From contig JAPLDH010000080.1 in NCBI GenBank assembly GCA_026391355.1, positions 1 through 64,000 on the forward strand: DNA of 64,000 nt, read 5' to 3'. Source of the stretch: Bacteroidota bacterium (GTDB taxonomy: Bacteria > Bacteroidota > Bacteroidia > Bacteroidales > FEN-979). The notes beneath the pieces are model-generated. The model searched no databases. It had not been told where the DNA came from and saw only the letters and a list, made by a program, of their open reading frames with translations. A program made the position numbers and the translations under genes. Shown here piece after piece: positions 1 through 8,602 of the stretch. The first letter of the stretch is position 1. Each line of letters starts with the position of its first letter.

Positions 1-130
1 AGAATTGATAAAGGGTATATCCGTAATGTTCTTACATTTATGTGATTGAACAGGAAGAGCCGTATGAAGGAAGACCTTCACGTACGGTTCCGTGGGAACG
101 CTGGGGTGAAACTCCCCGGCGTGACCCGAC
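1..130 (+). mobile_element. Group II intron copy A, 3' end only
   Basis: This is the tail of an intron that starts before the window. Domain V is a 34-nt hairpin at 57-90 that opens GAGCCG and closes CGGTTC. A domain VI-like hairpin follows, and the end is CCCGAC at 125-130, which fits the AY ending of group II introns. The stretch before domain V aligns closely with the end of the maturase gene and its trailer in the intron at 206-2078, so the two introns are relatives. The 75 bases between them (131-205) show no gene. Confidence 0.8.
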
Positions 131-205
131 TGTGCCTTGAAATGCTCCCTTAAACAAGGAACAAATGCTGTACAAATGATGGAAGGCTCTTTGAAAATTG
201 TGTAA

Positions 206-2078
206 GTGCGCGCAGGTCAAGCGAAGTGACTGGCCGGACTTACCAACGGAAAATGAGAAATGGACTTCTGTAAACGACTGTCAGGAGCAGTTTACAAACC
301 ACCTCATGTTTTACCCTGAGTTTATCGAAGGGCTGCATCGGGCGGAAACTCCCTTTGTGGTGAACGATAAGGAAAAGCGAGGGCTACGACCCTTGCAGGT
401 GGGTATTGTCGAACTGAATTAAGTAAACCAACTACTGAAGCCTCGTAAGCCGAAATAAACGATGTCAAAACCGGGCAGTTACGCTCGTGCCCGGGACCAA
501 GTGTAACAGATGACCTGATTACCGGTTACACGGCATCCGGGGTAAAGTTGGCAGGAAGGCAAAACAGGCTTTTGTACGGAACAAGGGAAGTCGCTATCGT
601 TCTGTTAACTGAACAAGGAATCAGACGTGGAGGGATACCACGAGATAGCGGTGGCGGACTAAGTCGTAGTAGCTGTGAAGCTTCTGTAATGGAAGGGGAG
701 CCAAGGGCTTAGCCTGTTCAGTTTCAAAATAAACGACAACCAGCAATGGGATGATTGATTATTACGAGACAAAATCACAACCGATAACCAGATTAATGGT
801 TTTACGGGCATACAAGAAAGTCAGAGCCAACAAAGGAGGCCCGGGCATAGATGGCATGAATTGGGAAGAACTGGACAAAAACCTGATCCCCAATCTCTAC
901 ACACTATGGAACAGGCTGACATCCGGCAGTTACTTTCCACAACCCGTAAAAGAAACGGAAATTGACAAGAAAGACGGAGGGGTACGAAAACTCGGTATTC
1001 CTACCATTCTGGATCGTATCGCACAACAAGTTGTCAAAACGCATCTTGAGCGAATCGTAGAGCCATTGTTCAGCGATAACTCCTTCGGCTACCGGCCGGG
1101 GAGAAATTGCCATCAGGCAGTGGAAAAAGCGCAACGCAACACGTTTGGACATGATTGGGCAATTGATCTGGACATCAAAAGTTTCTTCGACAAAATTGAT
1201 CATGAACTTTTGATGAAAGCAGTCAGGAACTATTGCAAGGATCAATGGGTGCTATTGTACATCGAACGATGGTTAAAAGCAGGAACATTTCAAAGTGATG
1301 GGAATTATGTTGACCGGTTAACCGGCACACCGCAAGGTGGCGTAATCAGCCCATTGCTGGCAAATATCTTCCTGCACGTTGTATTTGACAAATGGATGGA
1401 AAAATATCATCCTGAAAAGCCCTTTGTCAGGTACGCTGACGATATCGTAATTCATTGCAAAACGGAAAAACAGACACAGTATGTGTTAACATTAATACAG
1501 AAACGTCTGGCCGAATGCAAGCTGAGTACAAATCCCAAAAAGACCAGAATAGTTAACCTTGCCGGTATTACCCGGAACAAATATCCCAGAAGTCTTGATT
1601 TTCTTGGTTTCTCATTGCATCCCTGGTGGTGTAAAACCGGTAAGGGTTACCGGGTCATGATCACTGCCTTCATAAGCGCAAAATCCGTAAGTAAAGCATT
1701 GGATAAATTCGGTCAGCTAAAAATCCACAAATGGAGAAAATCCATTGAAGTATTAGCGGCTGATTTGAATCCAATCATACGGGGAATCAAAAACTATTAC
1801 TGTAAGTTCTGGGCAGAACATACCCATTACCTATGGTATCAGTTGAATGAAAGACTGTTGAAATGGGTACAATGGGAAAAAGGGCTGAACAAGAAAGCAG
1901 CCCTTTTCTGGCTTCGCAATAAGTATCGGGAAAGTCCGCGTCTTTTTGCCCATTGGGAATTGGTATATCCATAATGTTCTTATACATTTGTGATTGAACA
2001 GGAAGAGCCGTATGAAGGGAGACCCTCATGTACGGTTCTGTGGGAACGCAGGGGTGAAACTCCCCTGCGTGACCCGAC
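206..2078 (+). mobile_element. Complete group II intron B
   Basis: The 5' end is GTGCGCGC at 206-213, matching the GUGYG start of group II introns. Bases 214-750 would be domains I to III and the start of IV and hold no convincing gene. The maturase gene occupies domain IV. Domain V is at 2005-2038 (34 nt), domain VI follows, and the 3' end is CCCGAC at 2073-2078. The upstream neighbour is the tail of a related intron, so two relatives lie in tandem 75 bases apart. The 3' flanks of both copies begin TGTGC, which may be a shared target. The intron class was not assigned. Confidence 0.85.
751..1974 (+). CDS. ltrA: Group II intron reverse transcriptase/maturase
   Basis: This multifunctional protein assists splicing of its host intron and copies intron RNA into DNA at new sites. 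The 407 residues contain the usual RT blocks: a finger segment with the FGYRPGRNC motif, TPQGGVISPLLAN, and the catalytic YADD preceded by VR. A group II maturase (GIIM) domain covers about the last 100 residues, with NYYCKFW. The protein ends right after GIIM, so there is no HNH endonuclease domain, as in several endonuclease-less classes. The ATG at 751 lies inside domain IV and the reading frame is intact, so the element could be active. The function is well supported by motifs; mobility is inferred. Confidence 0.93.
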   Translation: MIDYYETKSQPITRLMVLRAYKKVRANKGGPGIDGMNWEELDKNLIPNLYTLWNRLTSGSYFPQPVKETEIDKKDGGVRKLGIPTILDRIAQQVVKTHLERIVEPLFSDNSFGYRPGRNCHQAVEKAQRNTFGHDWAIDLDIKSFFDKIDHELLMKAVRNYCKDQWVLLYIERWLKAGTFQSDGNYVDRLTGTPQGGVISPLLANIFLHVVFDKWMEKYHPEKPFVRYADDIVIHCKTEKQTQYVLTLIQKRLAECKLSTNPKKTRIVNLAGITRNKYPRSLDFLGFSLHPWWCKTGKGYRVMITAFISAKSVSKALDKFGQLKIHKWRKSIEVLAADLNPIIRGIKNYYCKFWAEHTHYLWYQLNERLLKWVQWEKGLNKKAALFWLRNKYRESPRLFAHWELVYP

Positions 2079-2141
2079 TGTGCGTAATGCCTTTAAACGG
2101 CTACACGATTGGGAATTCTGACAGATTTTTTGTACCTTTAC

Positions 2142-2669
2142 ATGATGAAAGACAAATTACAATACATAGACATCGAGATAGATAAATTAACTCGATCAAT
2201 TGAGAACAGGACTACTGGTGACAATTTCCAAACAGATGTTCTTCTACTTGACAGTAATGATTTGAAATCTATTACAAAAAGTCATAGCTGGTTGTTCGAC
2301 TGGAAAGCTGAATTTAGAAATGCTGACAGGGATGTGTATAAACTGGTAATTAGAAATAATTTAACTATAATCCAAGGAGTAATAAGTATCACTGAAAGAG
2401 AAGATCATGTTTATATGCATTTGATTGAAAGTGCTCCATTCAACCGTGGAAAAGATAAAGTATATCTTGGCGTTCCTGGAAACCTTGTTGCGTTTGCTTG
2501 CAAATTGTCTTTTCATAGAGGTTTTGAAGGGTATTTATCATTTAGGTCAAAATCGACATTACTTGATCATTATGAAAAAACACTTGGAGCACAACATATT
2601 GGTGGACAAATTATGGTGATAAACACTATGTCCGCATTAAAACTTATTGATAAATACTTTAAAGAATAA
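2142..2669 (+). CDS. GNAT-like protein of unknown substrate, intact copy
   Basis: The frame is open from a TTG at 2109, but the ATG at 2142 is the better start because it follows a TACCTTTA box by two bases and gives 175 residues. I recognise no named function. The C-terminal half resembles the acyl-CoA-binding core of GNAT acetyltransferases: a beta strand ending in HLIESAP, then GVPGNLVAFACKLSF like motif A, then DHYEKTLGA. A homologous but broken copy lies at 7524-8045. Both copies are followed within about ten bases by a tiny gene that shares an LEVDF motif, so this is a conserved two-gene module. A toxin-antitoxin pair is one possible reading, but nothing in the sequence proves it. Confidence 0.7.
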   Translation: MMKDKLQYIDIEIDKLTRSIENRTTGDNFQTDVLLLDSNDLKSITKSHSWLFDWKAEFRNADRDVYKLVIRNNLTIIQGVISITEREDHVYMHLIESAPFNRGKDKVYLGVPGNLVAFACKLSFHRGFEGYLSFRSKSTLLDHYEKTLGAQHIGGQIMVINTMSALKLIDKYFKE

Positions 2670-2673
2670 TTAT

Positions 2674-2829
2674 ATGGGAATTATTAAAGAACCTTTAGAA
2701 GTTGATTTCTTTGTTGATCCTAGACCATTAACAAAAGAAGAATGGGAAAAAATTAGTGACTTTATTGAAACTGATAAGAAAAACAGGAAACAAATAAAGA
2801 AAAGGCACATACGCACAACGAGCCGCTAA
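2674..2829 (+). CDS. Small partner protein of the GNAT-like gene
   Basis: This 51-residue protein starts with an ATG four bases after the stop of the GNAT-like gene, so the two are surely co-transcribed. It opens with PLEVDFFVDPRPLTKEEW and ends in a very basic tail rich in Lys and Arg. The gene at 8056-8229 sits in the same place behind the second GNAT-like copy and shares the LEVDF start and an acidic, helix-prone middle. Its stop codon lies inside the left arm of an attC-like stem-loop. The function is unknown; a small regulator or antidote of the upstream protein is conceivable. Confidence 0.65.
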   Translation: MGIIKEPLEVDFFVDPRPLTKEEWEKISDFIETDKKNRKQIKKRHIRTTSR

Positions 2830-2904
2830 TCGCAACAAAACTAACGCATTGGTTCTTAGCCAAGGGTCTACCTTTGCTGCGCTTAGCGGCGGGCCGTTAG
2901 CGGC
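2815..2904. repeat. attC-like stem-loop
   Basis: This imperfect palindrome has a left arm AACG plus GCCGCTAA (2817-2829), a 53-base centre, and a right arm TTAGCGGC plus CGTTAG (2883-2900). The right side carries unpaired bases that the left lacks, as in integron attC sites. It overlaps the stop codon of the preceding small gene, which is usual for gene cassettes. The element at 5621-5738 starts with the same AACGAGCCG word. No integrase gene is present in the window. Group II intron C begins nine bases after it. Confidence 0.45.
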
Positions 2905-2912
2905 TATATTCA

Positions 2913-5045
2913 GTGCGACACGAGGTCGTTCAAATAACTATTAAACGTTCTTTATTTAAGAGTGATTTAATCTCATGTTCCATCATGAGTAGCCTACCGG
3001 CACATGCGTCAATGGCAACGTTGGGGTGTGAAGCTGCCGGGAAAAGATTCCCAGACAGATAGCAACATTCTGAAAGGTGTCGGCTTGGGTGTTATGGTGA
3101 AAACATTTAAACTGCCGTAGACGTACCGTCATGCTCGAAAGTGTGAAAGTTGATGATACACATTGGCCAAAAAGGCAAGAAGACAGGATGCAAGTACGTT
3201 TTTTGCGAGCACATGGATGTTGATCTTCCGGTATATAGGCAGCACCTAACCCATCTGGTTATTTGAATGCAACGTGGTAAACCTGTATAGCTCCATTTTG
3301 CAATGGTAGGTTCACCGTGAGGCGAATACAATGCTAAACAGGCATGGGAGGATGGACAAAGCAAATGCCCTTTTGTAATGATTGGGATATGCCAACTTCC
3401 ATCTGGTTCTCTTTTGCAAGAACATTGTAGTAAGACTTTTATTCAGGAAAGCAAATGAAGTCCGATCAAAAGGATTGTGCACCGGAAACAAAACTAACGA
3501 ACTGGAATTCCATCCAATGGAAGAAGGTTAAGCAGTTGGTCAAGTCATTACAAGTACGTATTGCAAAGGCAATAAGGGAAGGCAGACATAACAGGGTGAA
3601 AGCCTTGCAATGGATTCTTACCCACTCGTTTGCAGCTAAATTATTAGCAGTACGACGGGTTACAGAAAATTCAGGAAAGCGCATACCGGGGACTGACGGA
3701 GTGCGTTGGAAAACCCCAGTTCAAAAACTCCGGGCAGCCAAATCTTTAATCAGGAAGGGCTATAAAGCACTGCCATTGCGGCGTTTGTTCATTTTCAAAA
3801 AGAACGGTAAGAAAAGACCGTTGGGAATACCCACGATGAACGACCGTGCATTTCAGGCTTTATATCTTCTTGCCCTTGAACCGGTATCAGAAACGTCAGC
3901 CGACAAATCTTCATATGGGTTTCGTCAGAAACGGAGCTGTCATGACGCAATCGAAAGATGTTATATTCATCTGTCGAGGAAAGACAGCGCAACATGGATA
4001 CTGGAAGGGGACATCAAAGGATGTTTTGACAACATCAACCATCAATGGTTACTTCAAAACATCCCGATGGATAAAAAGATATTGCAACAATGGCTAAAAG
4101 CCGGGTTTATCGAAAACAAACATTTATTTCCAACAACACAGGGAACTCCGCAAGGAGGCATCATTTCTCCCACACTCGCCAATATGACTCTTGACGGCAT
4201 TGAATCTGAACTTGATAAAGCGTTTGGAATGAAATTCAAACCCAACGGATGCCGCAAAAATAACTATCACAAAATCCACCTTATCCGATATGCCGATGAC
4301 TTCATTGTAACCGCTTCGGATAAGGATACATTGGTTAACAAGGTCAAACCTTTGATCGAGGATTTTCTCGCAAAAAGAGGGCTTCAGCTATCAACAGAGA
4401 AAACGAGGATCACCCACATCACCGAAGGATTTGATTTCCTTGGCCAGAACATAAGAATGTATTCCCACGGGAAACTTCTTATCCGGCCAACGAAAGAAGC
4501 TATCCTTGAGGTGAAGAGGAAGTTGAAGGGAATTATAGTTAAACACAGGGGATCAGAAGCGGCAGTCTTAATCCGAAACCTAAACCCGGTTATCACCGGA
4601 TGGGCAAACTACCACAGGCACGTCTGTTCTAAGAAAACATTTAACAGATTAGACAGAATCCTATGGCGCAACATCTGGAACTGGGCACGAAGAAGGCATA
4701 ATAATCTTGGTTACAGGAAAATCGTTTCGCTTTTATTTATGGCAAATGGCAACAGGAAATGGCAGTTCTTTGGCAAATTTAATGACGGAAAGGTTATCCT
4801 TCTGCGAATGTTTGCCGATGTCCAGATCAAGCGTCATAAGCTTATAAATAGTAAAGCTAATCCTTTTGACCCCACCTGGAATTATTACTTTTTCAATAGG
4901 TTAAGGAGTAGATATGTGAACTGAATATTATGTATATTGCCGGGTGGTTTAATCCGCCTTTTGAGAGCTTGAGCCGTATGATGGGAAACTATCAAGTACG
5001 GTTCTTAGGGGACAAGGGCGGAGTAATCCGCCTGCGTTACCCGAC
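2913..5045 (+). mobile_element. Complete group II intron C
   Basis: The proposed 5' end is GTGCGAC at 2913, a good match to the group II consensus. Bases 2920-3454 contain no convincing gene and would be RNA domains I to III. The maturase gene is at 3455-4924. Domain V is a 34-nt hairpin at 4971-5004, domain VI follows, and the end is CCCGAC at 5040-5045. It differs from introns A and B in maturase and RNA sequence, so it is an independent arrival. It sits immediately 3' of an attC-like stem-loop. Confidence 0.8.
3455..4924 (+). CDS. ltrA: Group II intron reverse transcriptase/maturase
   Basis: The 489 residues begin with an RT N-terminal domain (residues 1-85, with TNWNSIQWKKVKQLV). RT blocks follow: SSYGFRQKRSCHDAIERCY, QGTPQGGIISPTLANMTLDG, and the catalytic YADD in LIRYADDF. 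The GIIM maturase domain includes NPVITGWANYHRHV. The C-terminus reaches the NPFDPTWNYYF segment, after which relatives often carry an HNH nuclease, but here the protein stops. It is therefore an endonuclease-less or trimmed form. The frame is intact. It is only distantly related to the maturase at 751-1974. Confidence 0.93.
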   Translation: MKSDQKDCAPETKLTNWNSIQWKKVKQLVKSLQVRIAKAIREGRHNRVKALQWILTHSFAAKLLAVRRVTENSGKRIPGTDGVRWKTPVQKLRAAKSLIRKGYKALPLRRLFIFKKNGKKRPLGIPTMNDRAFQALYLLALEPVSETSADKSSYGFRQKRSCHDAIERCYIHLSRKDSATWILEGDIKGCFDNINHQWLLQNIPMDKKILQQWLKAGFIENKHLFPTTQGTPQGGIISPTLANMTLDGIESELDKAFGMKFKPNGCRKNNYHKIHLIRYADDFIVTASDKDTLVNKVKPLIEDFLAKRGLQLSTEKTRITHITEGFDFLGQNIRMYSHGKLLIRPTKEAILEVKRKLKGIIVKHRGSEAAVLIRNLNPVITGWANYHRHVCSKKTFNRLDRILWRNIWNWARRRHNNLGYRKIVSLLFMANGNRKWQFFGKFNDGKVILLRMFADVQIKRHKLINSKANPFDPTWNYYFFNRLRSRYVN

Positions 5046-5183
5046 AATATCATAGTGGTCAAAGAGACTGACCATTTAATTTGACAAACAAATTTTTATT
5101 ATAAAAGTGGAGATTAGAAACCACTAAAAAAACGGGGTGATACCGAAAAGCCTAATGAGTAGGAAAAACTAAAAAATAAATTT

Positions 5184-5531
5184 ATGAAAAAGGTAGCTTA
5201 TGTAATAGTAACAATTGGAGTAATTGTTGTCTTATTGGGATTATTTTTCAAAATGTATCATTGGGAGGGATCAGTAATATTTTTATATGGCTCCATATTT
5301 AGTTGGATTATTGCCTTTCCATTAATTGCAATTATTCTTTTGAAGGGAAAAGCAGCCAACAAAAACACTAATTTATTTGGAACAATTTCAGCATTTATAT
5401 TATTTGTTGGCATTTATTTCAAAATTCTTCACTACCCAGCTTCTGAACAGATTCAGGCAGTTGGTACAGTACTATTTATTGTTTTCTCGATTCTTTTTGC
5501 TTTGAATTTATATAAAAGTCCAAAAGAGTGA
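5184..5531 (+). CDS. Small four-helix membrane protein
   Basis: The 115 residues form four hydrophobic segments (about 5-25, 30-52, 63-80, 88-108). The protein has an internal duplication: each half contains the pattern G-hydrophobic-FK-x-x-H-W/Y, seen as LGLFFKMYHWEG and VGIYFKILHYPA. A similar K-x-x-H-W-P-G signature is found in the membrane part of the gliding protein GldL and in small Bacteroidetes membrane proteins. The gene lies alone between intron C and an attC-like element and is followed by a good terminator. No function can be assigned. Confidence 0.7.
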   Translation: MKKVAYVIVTIGVIVVLLGLFFKMYHWEGSVIFLYGSIFSWIIAFPLIAIILLKGKAANKNTNLFGTISAFILFVGIYFKILHYPASEQIQAVGTVLFIVFSILFALNLYKSPKE

Positions 5532-5549
5532 ATTGATAAAATAAAATGG

Positions 5550-5584
5550 GGCAGATTATTCCAGATAATTCTGCCTTATTTTTA
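5550..5584 (+). terminator. Intrinsic terminator after the small membrane protein
   Basis: GGCAGA (5550-5555) pairs with TCTGCC (5570-5575), with further A/T pairing inside. The stem is followed by TTATTTTT. It lies 19 bases after the stop codon at 5531. Confidence 0.7.
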
Positions 5585-5620
5585 ACTTTGTTCTTGTGGG
5601 ACAGAAAAACAAAACCTGGC

Positions 5621-5738
5621 CATAACGAGCCGTCAGCCGAGCAATGCGGGGCTTGTACAGAAGGCCAACATAGATCAAACCTGCTAATGTCGAACGAATA
5701 ACAAACAATATACAAGTAAAACCCCCTGCCGGTTATAG
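5621..5738. repeat. Second attC-like stem-loop
   Basis: The left end CATAACGAGCCG and the right end CCGGTTATAG are near-complementary. Inside, CTTGTA (5652-5657) can pair with TACAAG (5711-5716), and GCGGGG with a later run of C. It shares AACGAGCCG with the element at 2815-2904. Pairing is weaker than in that element. The rest of the 284-base gap before the next gene shows nothing else apart from a TACATTTA box before 5815. Confidence 0.3.
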
Positions 5739-5814
5739 TCAACCAATTAGCGACACTGCGAACTCAAACATTTGAGGACTGAATAAACACTTACATTTAA
5801 GCAAAAATCTAAAA

Positions 5815-6807
5815 ATGAAAAAACAAACAATATTTCTGCTGGCTACATTTATTTTCTGTTGCACAGTAATGGCACAGAATTTTTATACTGACCCATTTGC
5901 TCACACATTTTCAATTGTTGCGCGAGATTCGGTTACAGGTGAAATGGGAGTAGCAGTTCAGACGCATGCTTTTTCTGTCGGCACTGCAGTGACATGGGGA
6001 GAGGCGGGTGTGGGGGTAATAGCTACACAAGCATCAACAAAGATAGCTTTTGGTCCCGATGGTTTAAAATTATTGAAAGAAGGAAAATTACCTGAGGAAG
6101 TAGTGAAGATTTTAACCGAAGCGGATTCAGGTCGTAATAGTCGTCAACTGGGCGTATTGGATATGCAAGGACGTACTGCTTCATACACAGGAAAAAAATG
6201 TATAGCGTTTGCTGGAAACATTGCCGATAAAAATTTTTCGGTACAAGCAAATATGATGTTGAATGACAAAGTGATTCCTGCAATGGCAAAAGCATTTAAA
6301 GAATCAAAAGGTGCATTGGCTGAACGGATGATTTTAGCATTGGAAGCAGGTCAAAACGCAGGGGGTGATGTTCGCGGGAAGCAAAGTGCAGCAATTCTAA
6401 TTGTAAAACCTGTTGCCTCAGGACGAATTTGGGAAGACCGTTATATTGATTTGCGTGTGGACGACAATCCCGAACCGATTAAAGAATTGAAACGATTGCT
6501 GCAAGTTTTTCGTGCTAACGAACATGCAAATGCGGGCGATGAAGCAATAGAAAAAAATGACTGGACAACAGCAACTAAGGAATATGAGATTGCACAAAAA
6601 TTGGGTCCTAAAGATGTGGAGATGAAATTCTGGTACGCTATAGCCCTTGTGAATAATGGTAAAAAAGAAGAAGCATTACCGTTATTCAAAACAGTATTTG
6701 AATTGAATAATAACTGGACTTTGCTGATTCCCCGATTGAGAAAAGTTGATATTTTAACTTGCGATGATGAAACAGAAAAAATAATTTTAAGCATGAAGAA
6801 TAAGTAA
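5815..6807 (+). CDS. DUF1028 family protein with TPR-like tail
   Basis: The 330 residues start with a signal peptide ending in VMAQ. The DUF1028 domain, an Ntn-hydrolase-like fold, covers about residues 25-225 and shows HTFSIVARDSVTGEMGVAV near its start, then GVGVIATQAS and GGDVRGKQSAAILIV. The last 100 residues look like tetratricopeptide helices (ANAGDEAIEKNDWTTATKEY and following). The substrate is unknown for the family; hydrolase activity is inferred from the fold. Because of the signal peptide it should act in the periplasm or outside the cell. It is the largest cassette-like gene in the accessory region and stands alone. Confidence 0.85.
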   Translation: MKKQTIFLLATFIFCCTVMAQNFYTDPFAHTFSIVARDSVTGEMGVAVQTHAFSVGTAVTWGEAGVGVIATQASTKIAFGPDGLKLLKEGKLPEEVVKILTEADSGRNSRQLGVLDMQGRTASYTGKKCIAFAGNIADKNFSVQANMMLNDKVIPAMAKAFKESKGALAERMILALEAGQNAGGDVRGKQSAAILIVKPVASGRIWEDRYIDLRVDDNPEPIKELKRLLQVFRANEHANAGDEAIEKNDWTTATKEYEIAQKLGPKDVEMKFWYAIALVNNGKKEEALPLFKTVFELNNNWTLLIPRLRKVDILTCDDETEKIILSMKNK

Positions 6808-6894
6808 CTCAAATCGGACTTGTTAATATAAATCAAACTGGGGGTTATATGCAAGCTAAAAAAAACACTACGGACACTAGATAAATATGAAAAA

Positions 6895-7162
6895 ATGAAA
6901 TCAATTAATTTATTCTTTGTGATTTTTTTGACTTTAAATTCTTTCTCACAAAAAGAAGAGTTTTTTACAATAGTTAAAAACACTGCCACATCAGTAAAAG
7001 ACCAAGGTGGCCCCGGATGCTGGAGTATTTACTTAACCAAATATAACACTTTGTGAAATAATAACATTAGTCAAGGAAAATTTAAAAGAAATTGGATACC
7101 CTGGATTTATTACTGAATGGTATACAACAGGAATCCCGAAACTTAAAAGATGGAAGAATTAA
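6895..7162 (+). pseudogene. Frameshifted secreted protein remnant
   Basis: An ATG at 6895 opens 53 codons that begin with a signal peptide (LFFVIFLTLNSFS then QKEE) and stop at 7056. Coding resumes in the +1 frame across the stop, reading CEIITLVKENLKEIGYPGF and on to KLKRWKN with a stop at 7160-7162. The two parts together would give about 88 residues. This looks like one small secreted gene broken by a one-base indel, and perhaps also cut at its 3' end by intron D, which starts 17 bases later. The function is unknown. Confidence 0.5.
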
Positions 7163-7178
7163 AGAAAAATGCATGGTA

Positions 7179-7387
7179 ATCGAGTAGGCTGTCCCGTCAG
7201 CATCACCGACGGGGAGAGCCTCTCTTACGGTAAACCATATTTCGACATGGCTCAATATATCATATTTCGACATGGCTCAATATATCATATTTCGACATGG
7301 CTCAATATATCACCTTGCGACTTGCTAATACTTACGGGTCCGACCCCGTTGTATAAGGGACTTTCACCCTCTGGAAAATGTACACAC
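7179..7387 (-). mobile_element. Deleted group II intron D (minus strand)
   Basis: Read on the minus strand, the element begins GTGTGTA at 7387. A domain I-like stretch follows with GGTGAAAGTCCC and then TTAGCAAGTCGCAAGG. It ends with a domain VI-like hairpin and CCTACTCGAT at 7179. Domains II to V and the maturase are gone. Three direct repeats of 25 bases (7236-7310) sit at the junction. The CCTACTCGAY end is shared with the fragments ending at 8248 and 8602. Just upstream on the minus strand is an imperfect stem-loop (7384-7451). Confidence 0.55.
7236..7310. repeat. Three tandem copies of a 25-bp unit
   Basis: Three perfect copies occupy 7236-7260, 7261-7285 and 7286-7310. Each starts CATATTTCGACATGG and ends CTCAATATAT. 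A decayed start of a fourth copy may follow at 7311. The array lies inside the deleted intron D, between its 5' and 3' remnants. Confidence 0.9.
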
Positions 7388-7451
7388 TTGTTATGTAAGC
7401 CCTGATAAAGATTTGTATATTTGATCTTTTTCAACAGCTTACAACAAGTGT
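7384..7451. repeat. Imperfect inverted repeat beside intron D
   Basis: ACACTTGTTATGTAAG (7384-7399) and CTTACAACAAGTGT (7438-7451) are complementary apart from a two-base bulge, with a 38-base loop. On the minus strand the stem-loop ends at the 5' end of intron D. The rest of the stretch up to 7523 shows no gene. Confidence 0.5.
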
Positions 7452-7523
7452 TATACCCGATGCGGAGAAAAGCCATCATGAAATTTCTCAGAAACCAATG
7501 AATATTTTTCGTAACTTAGCTTC

Positions 7524-8045
7524 ATGAGAAGAAAAGCAGAAAAAGGGTTGGATTTTCACGTTGATAAGTTGACCAATTCAATTGAAAATGTTGTAACTGG
7601 TGATAGCTTCCAGACAGAAATTTCAGTAATAGCGGATAAGAATTTGAAATCGGTCACTAAAAAGAATGGATGGTTATTCAATTGGCGGAATGAATTTAAA
7701 TAGCCATCAAGGGAAGTATACAAATTGACAATCTTTAATAATCCCAATATTATTCAGGGACTTATCAGTATCGAGGTTAAGTCTGATCATGTTTACATGC
7801 ATTTGGTTGAAAGTGCACCATTCAATAAAGGCAAATCAAAAATGTATTCAGGTGTACCGGGAAATTTGGTTGCTTTTGCTTGCAAAGTTTCCTTTCAACG
7901 AGGACACCAGGGTAACGTATCATTTATTTCAAAAACACAGTTGATTGATCATTATCAAAAGACACTTGGCGCAATGCATTTTGGAGGAAGATTAATGATC
8001 ATTGAAACGCACGCTGCCTTAAAACTAATCAATAGATATTTTTAA
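7524..8045 (+). pseudogene. GNAT-like protein, broken copy
   Basis: From the ATG at 7524, after a TAACTTAG box, the frame is collinear with the intact protein at 2142-2669. It matches through DKLTNSIENVVTGDSFQTE and on to the end at LKLINRYF. A single in-frame TAG at 7701-7703 interrupts it after 59 codons, where the intact copy has coding sequence. Apart from the stop, all 174 codons read through, so the inactivation is recent or the stop is a sequencing error. Readthrough is possible but unsupported. The downstream partner gene is intact. Confidence 0.75.
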
Positions 8046-8055
8046 ATTACTTGCA

Positions 8056-8229
8056 ATGGCAACAAAGAAAATAGATTTAGAAGTTGACTTCATAGGAGGT
8101 CAAGAAGCTTTAACTGAAACTGAAGAAAAAGCATTATATGAATATTTTACATCTAAGAGATCTTCATTCATGCGACCTCCGTCCGAGAAACGTCACAAAT
8201 CATCCAAAAAACCGAAAGTTACGGTATGA
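8056..8229 (+). CDS. Small partner protein of the broken GNAT-like copy
   Basis: This 57-residue protein starts ten bases after the stop of the broken GNAT-like gene. It reads MATKKIDLEVDFIGG at the start, has an acidic stretch (TETEEKALYEYF), and ends in a Lys/Arg-rich tail with KRHKSSKKPKV. The LEVDF motif and gene position match the partner protein at 2674-2829. Deleted intron E begins 19 bases after its stop codon. The function is unknown. Confidence 0.6.
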   Translation: MATKKIDLEVDFIGGQEALTETEEKALYEYFTSKRSSFMRPPSEKRHKSSKKPKVTV

Positions 8230-8247
8230 AAAACCGCACCGGGTATT

Positions 8248-8470
8248 ATCGAGTAGGCGGCTCCGTCAGCCGGAGCTGACGGAGTGCACCTCTCACACCA
8301 CCGTGTGTACGGGTCACGTATATTGAATCAGGAACGACATAACCTTCAGTCCTTTGCTACTTTGGTGAGGCCTCCGGCTTTCTATGCCGGCTCGGTTCCG
8401 GTAACTACTATGATCCCGAAGTTTCGGGACTGACTTCCCGTATTATCGTTGCCGACACTCCGGGATATGA
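8248..8470 (-). mobile_element. Deleted group II intron E (minus strand)
   Basis: On the minus strand the 3' end is CCTACTCGAT at 8248. It is preceded by a strong GC-rich hairpin (about 8257-8282) and a domain V-like piece containing GACCCGTACACACGGTGG. Further upstream is a segment resembling the RNA just before a maturase gene (GGGAAGTCAGTCCCG, then CATAGTAGTTACCGG and AGTAGCAAAGGACTGAAGG). No maturase remains, so it is a deletion derivative. The 5' boundary near 8470 is uncertain. Confidence 0.5.
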
Positions 8471-8494
8471 TGGAGTTAACTGAACAACTGTTAT

Positions 8495-8602
8495 AACAGG
8501 AGAATTCAAGCACTGAGTATCAGCAGAAGAGCCGTATGATGCGAGAGTATCACGTACGTTTCCGTGAGAGGCTTGGGGTGAAATTCCCCAGGCCTACTCG
8601 AC
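8495..8602 (+). mobile_element. Group II intron fragment F, 3' end
   Basis: A 34-nt domain V hairpin lies at 8529-8562 (GAGCCG to CGTTTC). A domain VI-like hairpin with GGCTTGGGG and CCCCAGGCC follows, and the end is CTACTCGAC at 8594-8602. No maturase or 5' end was found upstream; the left boundary is a guess. It faces intron E head to head. The 149 bases from 8603 to 8751 hold no clear gene. Confidence 0.6.

What the first reader, a model, noticed from the sequence alone, without database searches (positions are those of the whole stretch)
2142..8229. Duplicated two-gene module: GNAT-like protein and tiny LEVDF partner
The module appears at 2142-2829 and 7524-8229. In the second copy the large gene has an in-frame TAG but the partner is intact. 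A conserved GNAT-like protein with a small basic-tailed partner of 50-60 residues in a mobile region recalls toxin-antitoxin or accessory regulators. Loss of the large gene while the partner stays open fits that pattern, although other explanations are possible.
Basis: partly seen in the sequence, partly recalled or inferred. Interest (0 to 1): 0.6.

Follow-up and report, generated by a model that had tools for sequence, protein, structure and literature searches.

The report
Acetyltransferase-like toxin with tiny antidote
Two adjacent bacterial genes, for an acetyltransferase-like protein and a 50-60 residue partner, look like a new kind of toxin-antidote pair that travels as a self-contained cassette, because the partner is usually kept when the larger gene breaks while the reverse is hardly ever seen.

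Summary
In detail: large gene 2142-2669 with partner 2674-2829, and large gene 7524-8045 (TAG at 7701-7703) with partner 8056-8229. They are not a recent duplication: copy 2 is closer to a module in another genome. The large protein is predicted to have a GNAT acetyltransferase fold; its best structural matches include tRNA-acetylating toxins, tied with ordinary GNATs. In 297 related genomes none of 24 intact large genes of this clade lacks the partner; 14 broken large genes keep an open partner with ATG; 6 partners stand alone and open. One counterexample exists elsewhere (L045). A sister clade pairs the same domain with HigA-like helix-turn-helix proteins, and a Fusobacterium phage carries it on a minor head protein followed by a small gene. 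A third copy in this genome is a cassette in an integron-like attC array; window copy 1 matches that cassette. In 57 of 91 intact modules the promoter box is spaced so that the toxin start codon falls on the predicted transcription start. Best reading: a toxin-first type II-like toxin-antitoxin family whose very short antitoxin has no recognised DNA-binding domain. Toxicity, neutralisation and target are untested. New variant of a known kind.

The parts
2003..2078 (+). Rfam group II intron match (RF00029) that ends one base before copy 1's homology to the C9 cassette begins
2079..2825 (+). stretch homologous to the cassette on contig C9 (84% DNA identity), holding copy 1
2133..2140 (+). -7 type promoter box TACCTTTA; ATG 2145 is 5 bases after its seventh base
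   Evidence: sequence; spacing rule and controls
2142..2669 (+). copy 1 large gene, GNAT-fold protein (predicted toxin)
2674..2829 (+). copy 1 small partner, 51 aa (predicted antitoxin)
2811..2906 (+). attC-like hairpin (fold -37.1 kcal/mol); left arm homologous to a C9 attC, not found by the C9 attC model
2887..2991 (+). stretch 80% identical to the right end of the C9 attC and the start of the next C9 cassette
7512..7519 (+). -7 type promoter box TAACTTAG of copy 2; ATG 7524 is 5 bases after its seventh base
   Evidence: sequence
7524..8045 (+). copy 2 large gene, interrupted by TAG at 7701-7703
8056..8229 (+). copy 2 small partner, 57 aa, open

Best explanation
A type II-like toxin-antitoxin module in toxin-first order. 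The large gene encodes a GNAT-fold protein, probably an acetyltransferase toxin that slows growth; by analogy with AtaT/TacT/KacT the likeliest target is charged tRNA (inferred, about 0.45 on its own). The 50-60 residue partner, a flexible N-terminus with the LEVDF motif followed by one long Lys-rich helix, would bind the toxin and block it (inferred). Both genes follow one Bacteroidota-type promoter placed for a leaderless toxin mRNA (predicted from sequence), so the unit can be expressed wherever it lands. It spreads as an integron-type cassette and by other insertions flanked by direct repeats. Shown here by computation: the pair, the predicted fold, the tight co-occurrence, the one-sided decay, and the cassette context of the C9 copy. 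Not shown: toxicity, neutralisation, binding, target.
For: Partner beside every intact large gene of this clade in 297 genomes (24 of 24, with frames from 64, 79, 93). In the same genomes 14 broken large genes keep an open partner with ATG, and 6 partners stand alone with ATG. One-sided decay against a length-proportional null: 1 partner-only lesion in 21, P 0.0245; in 27 with stand-alone partners, P 0.006. GNAT model pLDDT 93; TacT3 ranks first and second at Z 12.6 and 12.3, tied with other GNATs. Tyr144 invariant in 60 of 60 and in 10 of 10 of a wider set. Sister clade paired with HigA-like proteins. Phage minor head protein fusion with a small ORF behind it. C9 copy in an attC array with two PIN genes and a Fic gene. 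Distances of the two proteins correlate, r 0.62, n 91.
Against: No window protein matches a known toxin or antitoxin model, and none of the 25 Pfam families listed for the 60 members is a GNAT. The structural likeness to toxins is tied with ordinary GNATs. The Arg/Gln usual in the acyl-CoA loop is Val107 here (read; the rule is recalled). L045 has an intact large gene with a frameshifted partner. Two of nine partners without a usable large gene lack a start codon, so lone partners also decay. The decay test ignores shared ancestry. The partner has no recognised DNA-binding part. One sister-clade locus, L155, shows no HigA-like partner.
Confidence: 0.73

Rival explanations
1. The small protein is the working product (for example nucleic-acid-binding or membrane-active) and the GNAT only modifies it, perhaps by acetylating its Lys-rich tail. 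Loss of the GNAT is tolerated and the small gene is kept.
For: Small genes outlast large ones; the tail is Lys-rich; GNATs commonly acetylate lysine (recalled).
Against: In the sister clade, on the plasmids looked at and behind the phage fusion, the partners are different proteins, which fits exchangeable antidotes better than one modified substrate. The small gene evolves faster than the large one (median dN/dS 0.40 against 0.14).
Confidence: 0.12
2. An accessory acetyltransferase cassette (drug or metabolite modification) with a small helper protein, as integron cassettes often carry.
For: One copy lies in an attC array; the domain is a GNAT; a Streptococcus relative gives a weak match (E 0.04, far below cut-off) to an aminoglycoside acetyltransferase model.
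Against: Near-obligate pairing and one-sided decay are not expected of a simple enzyme; HigA-like partners in the sister clade; fusion to a phage minor head protein.
Confidence: 0.1
3. A phage-related defence or contest system: the GNAT stops translation on infection, and stand-alone partners protect against incoming toxins, including capsid-borne ones. This is a biological role of the same pair more than a different mechanism.
For: Domain fused to a MuF-type minor head protein and two more viral minor capsid proteins; lone immunity genes are discussed for such toxins (passages of PMC11699363).
Against: No PADLOC match; no relative among viral contigs by the window protein; Bacteroidota copies are free-standing without a delivery domain.
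Confidence: 0.25

Closest known systems
GNAT-RHH toxin-antitoxin systems (AtaRT, TacAT, KacAT; DUF1778 antitoxins)
   Same: GNAT fold, conserved Tyr in the equivalent helix (inferred), two-gene unit, best structural matches.
   Different: No RHH/DUF1778 match for the 50-60 aa partner; toxin gene first; no detectable sequence similarity in the PDB sequence search.
GNAT-Xre / GNAT-HTH systems (PacTA, PMC9561280; GacTA, PMC6929052; passages)
   Same: Toxin gene first for GacTA as stated in the passages read; the sister clade here has HTH partners.
   Different: The partner of the window's clade is far shorter and has no HTH match.
MuF polymorphic toxins of temperate phages (PMC5576092, PMC11699363; passages)
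   Same: A homologous domain is the C-terminus of a Fusobacterium phage minor head protein followed by a small ORF.
   Different: The window protein has no MuF or other delivery domain; 'acetyltransferase' and 'GNAT' do not occur in the main text of either paper.
Toxin-antitoxin cassettes of chromosomal integrons
   Same: The third copy is a cassette in an attC array that also holds two PIN genes and a Fic gene.
   Different: The neighbouring recombinase is below the integron-integrase cut-off; the cassette appears to carry its own leaderless-type promoter.

Membership tests
GNAT superfamily | GNAT fold | tested here: met
   AlphaFold2 model pLDDT 93; best matches are GNAT acetyltransferases
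GNAT superfamily | acyl-CoA loop Q/R-x-x-G-x-G/A (rule recalled) | tested here: inconclusive
   Glycines 110 and 113 invariant, but the aligned Arg of the Streptococcus relative is Val107 here
GNAT superfamily | match to a curated GNAT model | tested here: not met
   No Pfam or NCBIfam match for the window protein; the Streptococcus relative matches Acetyltransf_1 above cut-off
GNAT-RHH toxin-antitoxin (AtaRT/TacAT) | RHH DUF1778 antitoxin | tested here: not met
   No Pfam match for either partner; model is one helix without a strand
GNAT-RHH toxin-antitoxin (AtaRT/TacAT) | antitoxin gene first | tested here: not met
   Large gene first in both copies and in the loci
GNAT-RHH toxin-antitoxin (AtaRT/TacAT) | acetylation of aminoacyl-tRNA | not testable with these tools
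   needs a biochemical assay
GNAT-Xre toxin-antitoxin (PacTA) | HTH/Xre antitoxin | tested here: not met
   No HTH match for the window partners; met in the sister clade
Type II toxin-antitoxin (general) | two adjacent genes with a small partner, kept together | tested here: met
Type II toxin-antitoxin (general) | toxin poisons the cell and the antitoxin protein neutralises it by binding | not testable with these tools
   needs expression and binding experiments
MuF polymorphic toxin | N-terminal MuF domain | tested here: not met
   Window protein is the bare domain; met by the phage relative
Integron gene cassette | gene followed by an attC site in an array | tested here: met
   C9 copy: array of hairpins with compensatory changes. 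For window copy 1 only by homology; its own site is not found by the model
Integron | IntI-type integrase with its integron-specific part | tested here: inconclusive
   C9 recombinase: TIGR02249 217.6 bits, cut-off 265, XerA model 216.9; model positions 180-237 not aligned

The most novel reading that the evidence does not exclude
One GNAT toxin domain serves as a shared warhead with exchangeable antidotes: a 50-60 residue helical protein in Bacteroidota cassettes, HigA-like HTH proteins in a sister clade, other short proteins on Bacillota and Treponema plasmids, and a small ORF behind a capsid-fused phage version. The Bacteroidota form is read from a leaderless mRNA at a promoter carried inside the cassette, and its antidote is repeatedly kept as a lone protective gene after the toxin breaks.
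Probability: 0.5. Interest if true: 0.72.

Novelty: new variant of a known kind. Interest (0 to 1): 0.6.

Why it matters
If right, this is an undescribed toxin-antitoxin family (not found in the searches) spread over Bacteroidota: the domain, sister clade included, is in 32 of 395 genomes sampled over the phylum. Its antitoxin is very short and has no recognised DNA-binding part, and its layout implies a leaderless toxin mRNA, which is rare in the phylum (5.5% of mRNAs in one map, about 3.7% of leaders under 10 nt in another; passages). It links integron cassettes, HigA-type modules and capsid-fused phage proteins through one domain, so how a toxin fold changes antidotes becomes directly testable.

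Tried and rejected
Family searches of the window proteins gave nothing significant: Pfam, NCBIfam and PADLOC (best E 0.013 for a copy 2 fragment), PHROGs (best E 0.014 for the partner). Sequence searches of solved structures gave nothing significant (best E 0.87, none). The scan of viral contigs with the window protein found no relative. Similarity of the small partner to the N-terminus of the HigA-like partners was suspected and not supported (hhalign probability 0.6%, E 0.097; hmmsearch best E 0.072). The small-protein model found no match in the small ORFs beside the plasmid and phage relatives. A simple arm rule for attC-like sites gave 8 of 158 flanks against 5 of 790 shuffled ones (mononucleotide shuffles). 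The covariance model from C9 was searched over 89 sources and found nothing at E below 0.9 outside C9, so the integron claim rests on C9 and on homology to it. Local duplication was rejected.

Counting by hand, with frames from 64, 79 and 93. Dropped before the count in 297 genomes: contig-edge cases G041, G089:C63, G089:C153, G641; three weak small hits G058, G063, G072; six loci of the HigA-linked clade. G574 (altered C-terminus, open frame) was counted as intact. G064 (partner cut to 38 codons, large broken) and G016 (large broken, partner absent) were counted apart.

Full report
WHAT IS IN THE SEQUENCE. Both modules are present as described. Copy 1 has a large gene at 2142-2669 and a 51-codon partner at 2674-2829. 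Copy 2 has a large gene at 7524-8045, stopped by TAG at 7701-7703, and a 57-codon partner at 8056-8229. The genome holds two more copies, on contigs C9 and C22. The large proteins of the window copies are 60% identical, the partners 30% over 47 residues. Copy 2 is closer to a module of another genome in the family (80% before, 88% after the TAG) than to copy 1 (66% after the TAG), so the copies are separate lineages. The part after the TAG still shows dN/dS 0.05, so the stop is recent or an error.

FOLD. No family model matches the window proteins significantly, and none of the 25 Pfam families listed for the 60 members of alignment A1 is a GNAT. The structure model from A1 has mean pLDDT 93. 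Nearly all matches shown are named acetyltransferases. In the re-ranking, Salmonella TacT3 is first and second (Z 12.6 and 12.3), and AtaT2, TacT2, AtaT, KacT and GmvT are in the top 50, but ordinary GNATs lie within about one Z unit. The fold is firm; the toxin likeness is only suggestive. Tyr144 lies in the helix after strand 132-136 and is invariant in 60 of 60 and in 10 of 10 of a wider alignment. That it equals the catalytic Tyr of AtaT and KacT is inferred. A Streptococcus plasmid relative (31% identity) matches Pfam Acetyltransf_1 above its cut-off.

PAIRING. In 84 loci, some of them the same place twice, an automatic search found the partner in 79. Of the other five, L025 has it further downstream, L040 and L075 run off the contig, and L033 and L045 have it frameshifted. 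Two searches over the same 297 genomes, one with each protein, give a sample not chosen by either gene alone: 24 intact pairs; 14 broken large genes (stops, frameshifts, internal deletions) with an open partner, all 14 with ATG; 1 broken large with a partner cut to 38 codons (G064); 1 broken large with no partner (G016); no intact large gene without partner. Nine further partners have no usable large gene: 6 free-standing with ATG, 1 inside a 524-residue frame, 2 without a start codon. In the 71 named loci, 74 large-gene rows were scored: 58 both intact; 6 broken large with open partner (6 of 6 with ATG); 2 large genes cut by contig ends with partner; 1 both broken (L033); 1 intact large with frameshifted partner (L045, a metagenome-assembled chromosome); 4 intact large genes whose divergent but open partner the model did not score as intact (L041, L067, L068, L073); and 2 large fragments without partner (second copy in L047; L075 at a contig end). 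In the phylum sample, searched with the large protein only, I saw 4 more broken large genes of this clade with an open partner (G270, G291, G310, G365), one locus with both broken (G218) and one broken large without partner (G435).

DECAY TEST. If lesions fell in proportion to gene length (525 and 165 bases), 1 partner-only lesion among 21 single-gene lesions (14 + 6 + 1) has P = 0.0245; with the 4 phylum cases, 1 in 25, P = 0.0096; with the 6 stand-alone partners instead, 1 in 27, P = 0.0059; with both, 1 in 31, P = 0.0022. Shared ancestry among loci is not corrected for, so these are guides.

SELECTION AND COEVOLUTION. Over 91 intact pairs the distances of the two proteins correlate (r = 0.62; maximum 0.21 in 2000 permutations). 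Median dN/dS over 646 comparisons is 0.14 for the large and 0.40 for the small gene. The faster small gene fits an antidote, but also many short proteins.

THE SAME DOMAIN WITH OTHER PARTNERS. Among the Bacteroidota hits is a sister clade of 17 loci (E about 1e-12 to 1e-34 against the A1 model). In 16 of 17 a 156-184 residue ORF follows, overlapping the large gene in 13; L155 shows none within 120 bases. One fragment (G214) and one weak hit (G436) were left out. Of 9 such partners scanned, 7 match the HigA antitoxin model at E 0.1 or better and one passes its cut-off; 9 of 10 match HTH_3, 2 above its cut-off. On 4 of the 13 plasmid records found (Paenibacillus twice, Treponema, Streptococcus) the homologue is followed by an ORF of 54-70 residues. 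In Fusobacterium phage phiPaco the domain is the C-terminus of a 524-residue minor head protein (Phage_Mu_F, E 3.9e-11), with a 58-residue ORF overlapping its end. Five IMG/VR contigs, 95-100% identical, have the same 58-residue ORF; three show the 524-residue frame, one a shorter 302-residue frame, one is cut by the contig end. Two further viral minor capsid proteins match the model at TM 0.86-0.87 and 32-34% identity. MuF proteins are described as phage-encoded polymorphic toxins, mostly followed by small ORFs taken as immunity genes (passages of PMC5576092, and PMC11699363).

CASSETTE. On C9 the third copy lies in an array of attC-like hairpins of 131-136 bases. Seven were used to build the model (12 of its 37 pairs show compensatory changes) and match it by construction; an eighth was then found at E 1.5e-4. 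Beside the array is a 544-residue tyrosine recombinase whose best model is integron integrase at 217.6 bits, below the cut-off of 265 and level with XerA. The array also holds a Fic gene, a TrmO-like gene and two PIN genes. Window copy 1 matches the C9 cassette from 2079, the base after an Rfam group II intron match, to 2825, and 2887-2991 matches the right end of the C9 attC and the start of the next cassette. So copy 1 sits in a related array broken by introns. Its own attC is not recognised by the model. Across genomes 29 of 88 modules are flanked by direct repeats at E < 1e-3, against 5 of 210 control blocks, which were taken only from loci of 8 kb or more. By eye some repeats look like attC sites and others are copies of the end of a neighbouring gene.

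EXPRESSION. In 73 of 91 intact modules a TAnnTTN box lies 0-14 bases before an in-frame start, and in 57 the spacing is exactly 5. Among 308 other ORFs of the same loci the figures are 50 and 12. The control used only the first ATG whereas the module test allowed any in-frame ATG, GTG or TTG, and the modules share ancestry; both inflate the contrast. With the box at -12 to -5 (PMC9723704, passage) spacing 5 puts the start codon on +1. The stand-alone partner of L230 has the same spacing before its own ATG (sequence).

MECHANISM. I commit to a toxin-first type II-like module: GNAT toxin and a short antidote that binds it, both from one cassette-borne promoter. Translation block by acetylation of charged tRNA is the likeliest action by analogy with GNAT toxins (abstract and passages of PMC9177977), at about 0.45 for that step alone. 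The partner model is a flexible N-terminus and a helix from residue 21 to 50 (mean pLDDT 80.6, pTM 0.43). With no recognised DNA-binding part, autoregulation by the antidote is not expected; this is inference.

WHAT IT IS NOT. It fails two defining features of GNAT-RHH systems (RHH antitoxin, antitoxin-first order) and, in this clade, the HTH feature of GNAT-Xre systems. I therefore file it as a new variant of GNAT toxin-antitoxin systems and as a member of neither.

Noticed in passing
window 55-8602: Four Rfam group II intron domain matches (55-130, 2003-2078, 4969-5045, 8527-8602), two intron 5' domain matches (256-400, 2971-3080) and two reverse-transcriptase-like ORFs (751-1974, 3455-4924) lie among the cassette genes.
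   Followed up: partly
window 5102-5531: A DUF805 RNA motif (RF03081, 81.4 bits) ends 14 bases before a small membrane-protein ORF at 5184-5531 with a marginal GldL_N match.
   Followed up: no
window 5815-6807: DUF1028 protein with TPR repeats between the two modules.
   Followed up: no
L239:1984-3558: The first 35 or so residues of the small partner are in frame with a 524-residue protein matching deaminase and HATPase_c_4 models: a possible fusion of the antidote segment to another protein.
   Followed up: partly
L024, L031, L037, L047, L052, L066, L104 and others (module flanks): Modules sit between direct repeats of tens to over 200 bases that differ from genome to genome and often copy the end of a neighbouring gene (29 of 88 modules). 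The insertion mechanism is unexplained.
   Followed up: partly
L163, L168, L173, L174: Several broken large genes lost their middle part (roughly residues 60-150) but keep both ends and the partner.
   Followed up: partly
L252:128-1762: The recombinase beside the C9 attC array has an N-terminal extension of about 265 residues and does not align over positions 180-237 of the integron integrase model: possibly an integron variant.
   Followed up: partly
L020:3008-5028, L030:5527-5894: Two and three copies of the small partner gene in a row with only one large gene, like a store of antidote genes.
   Followed up: no
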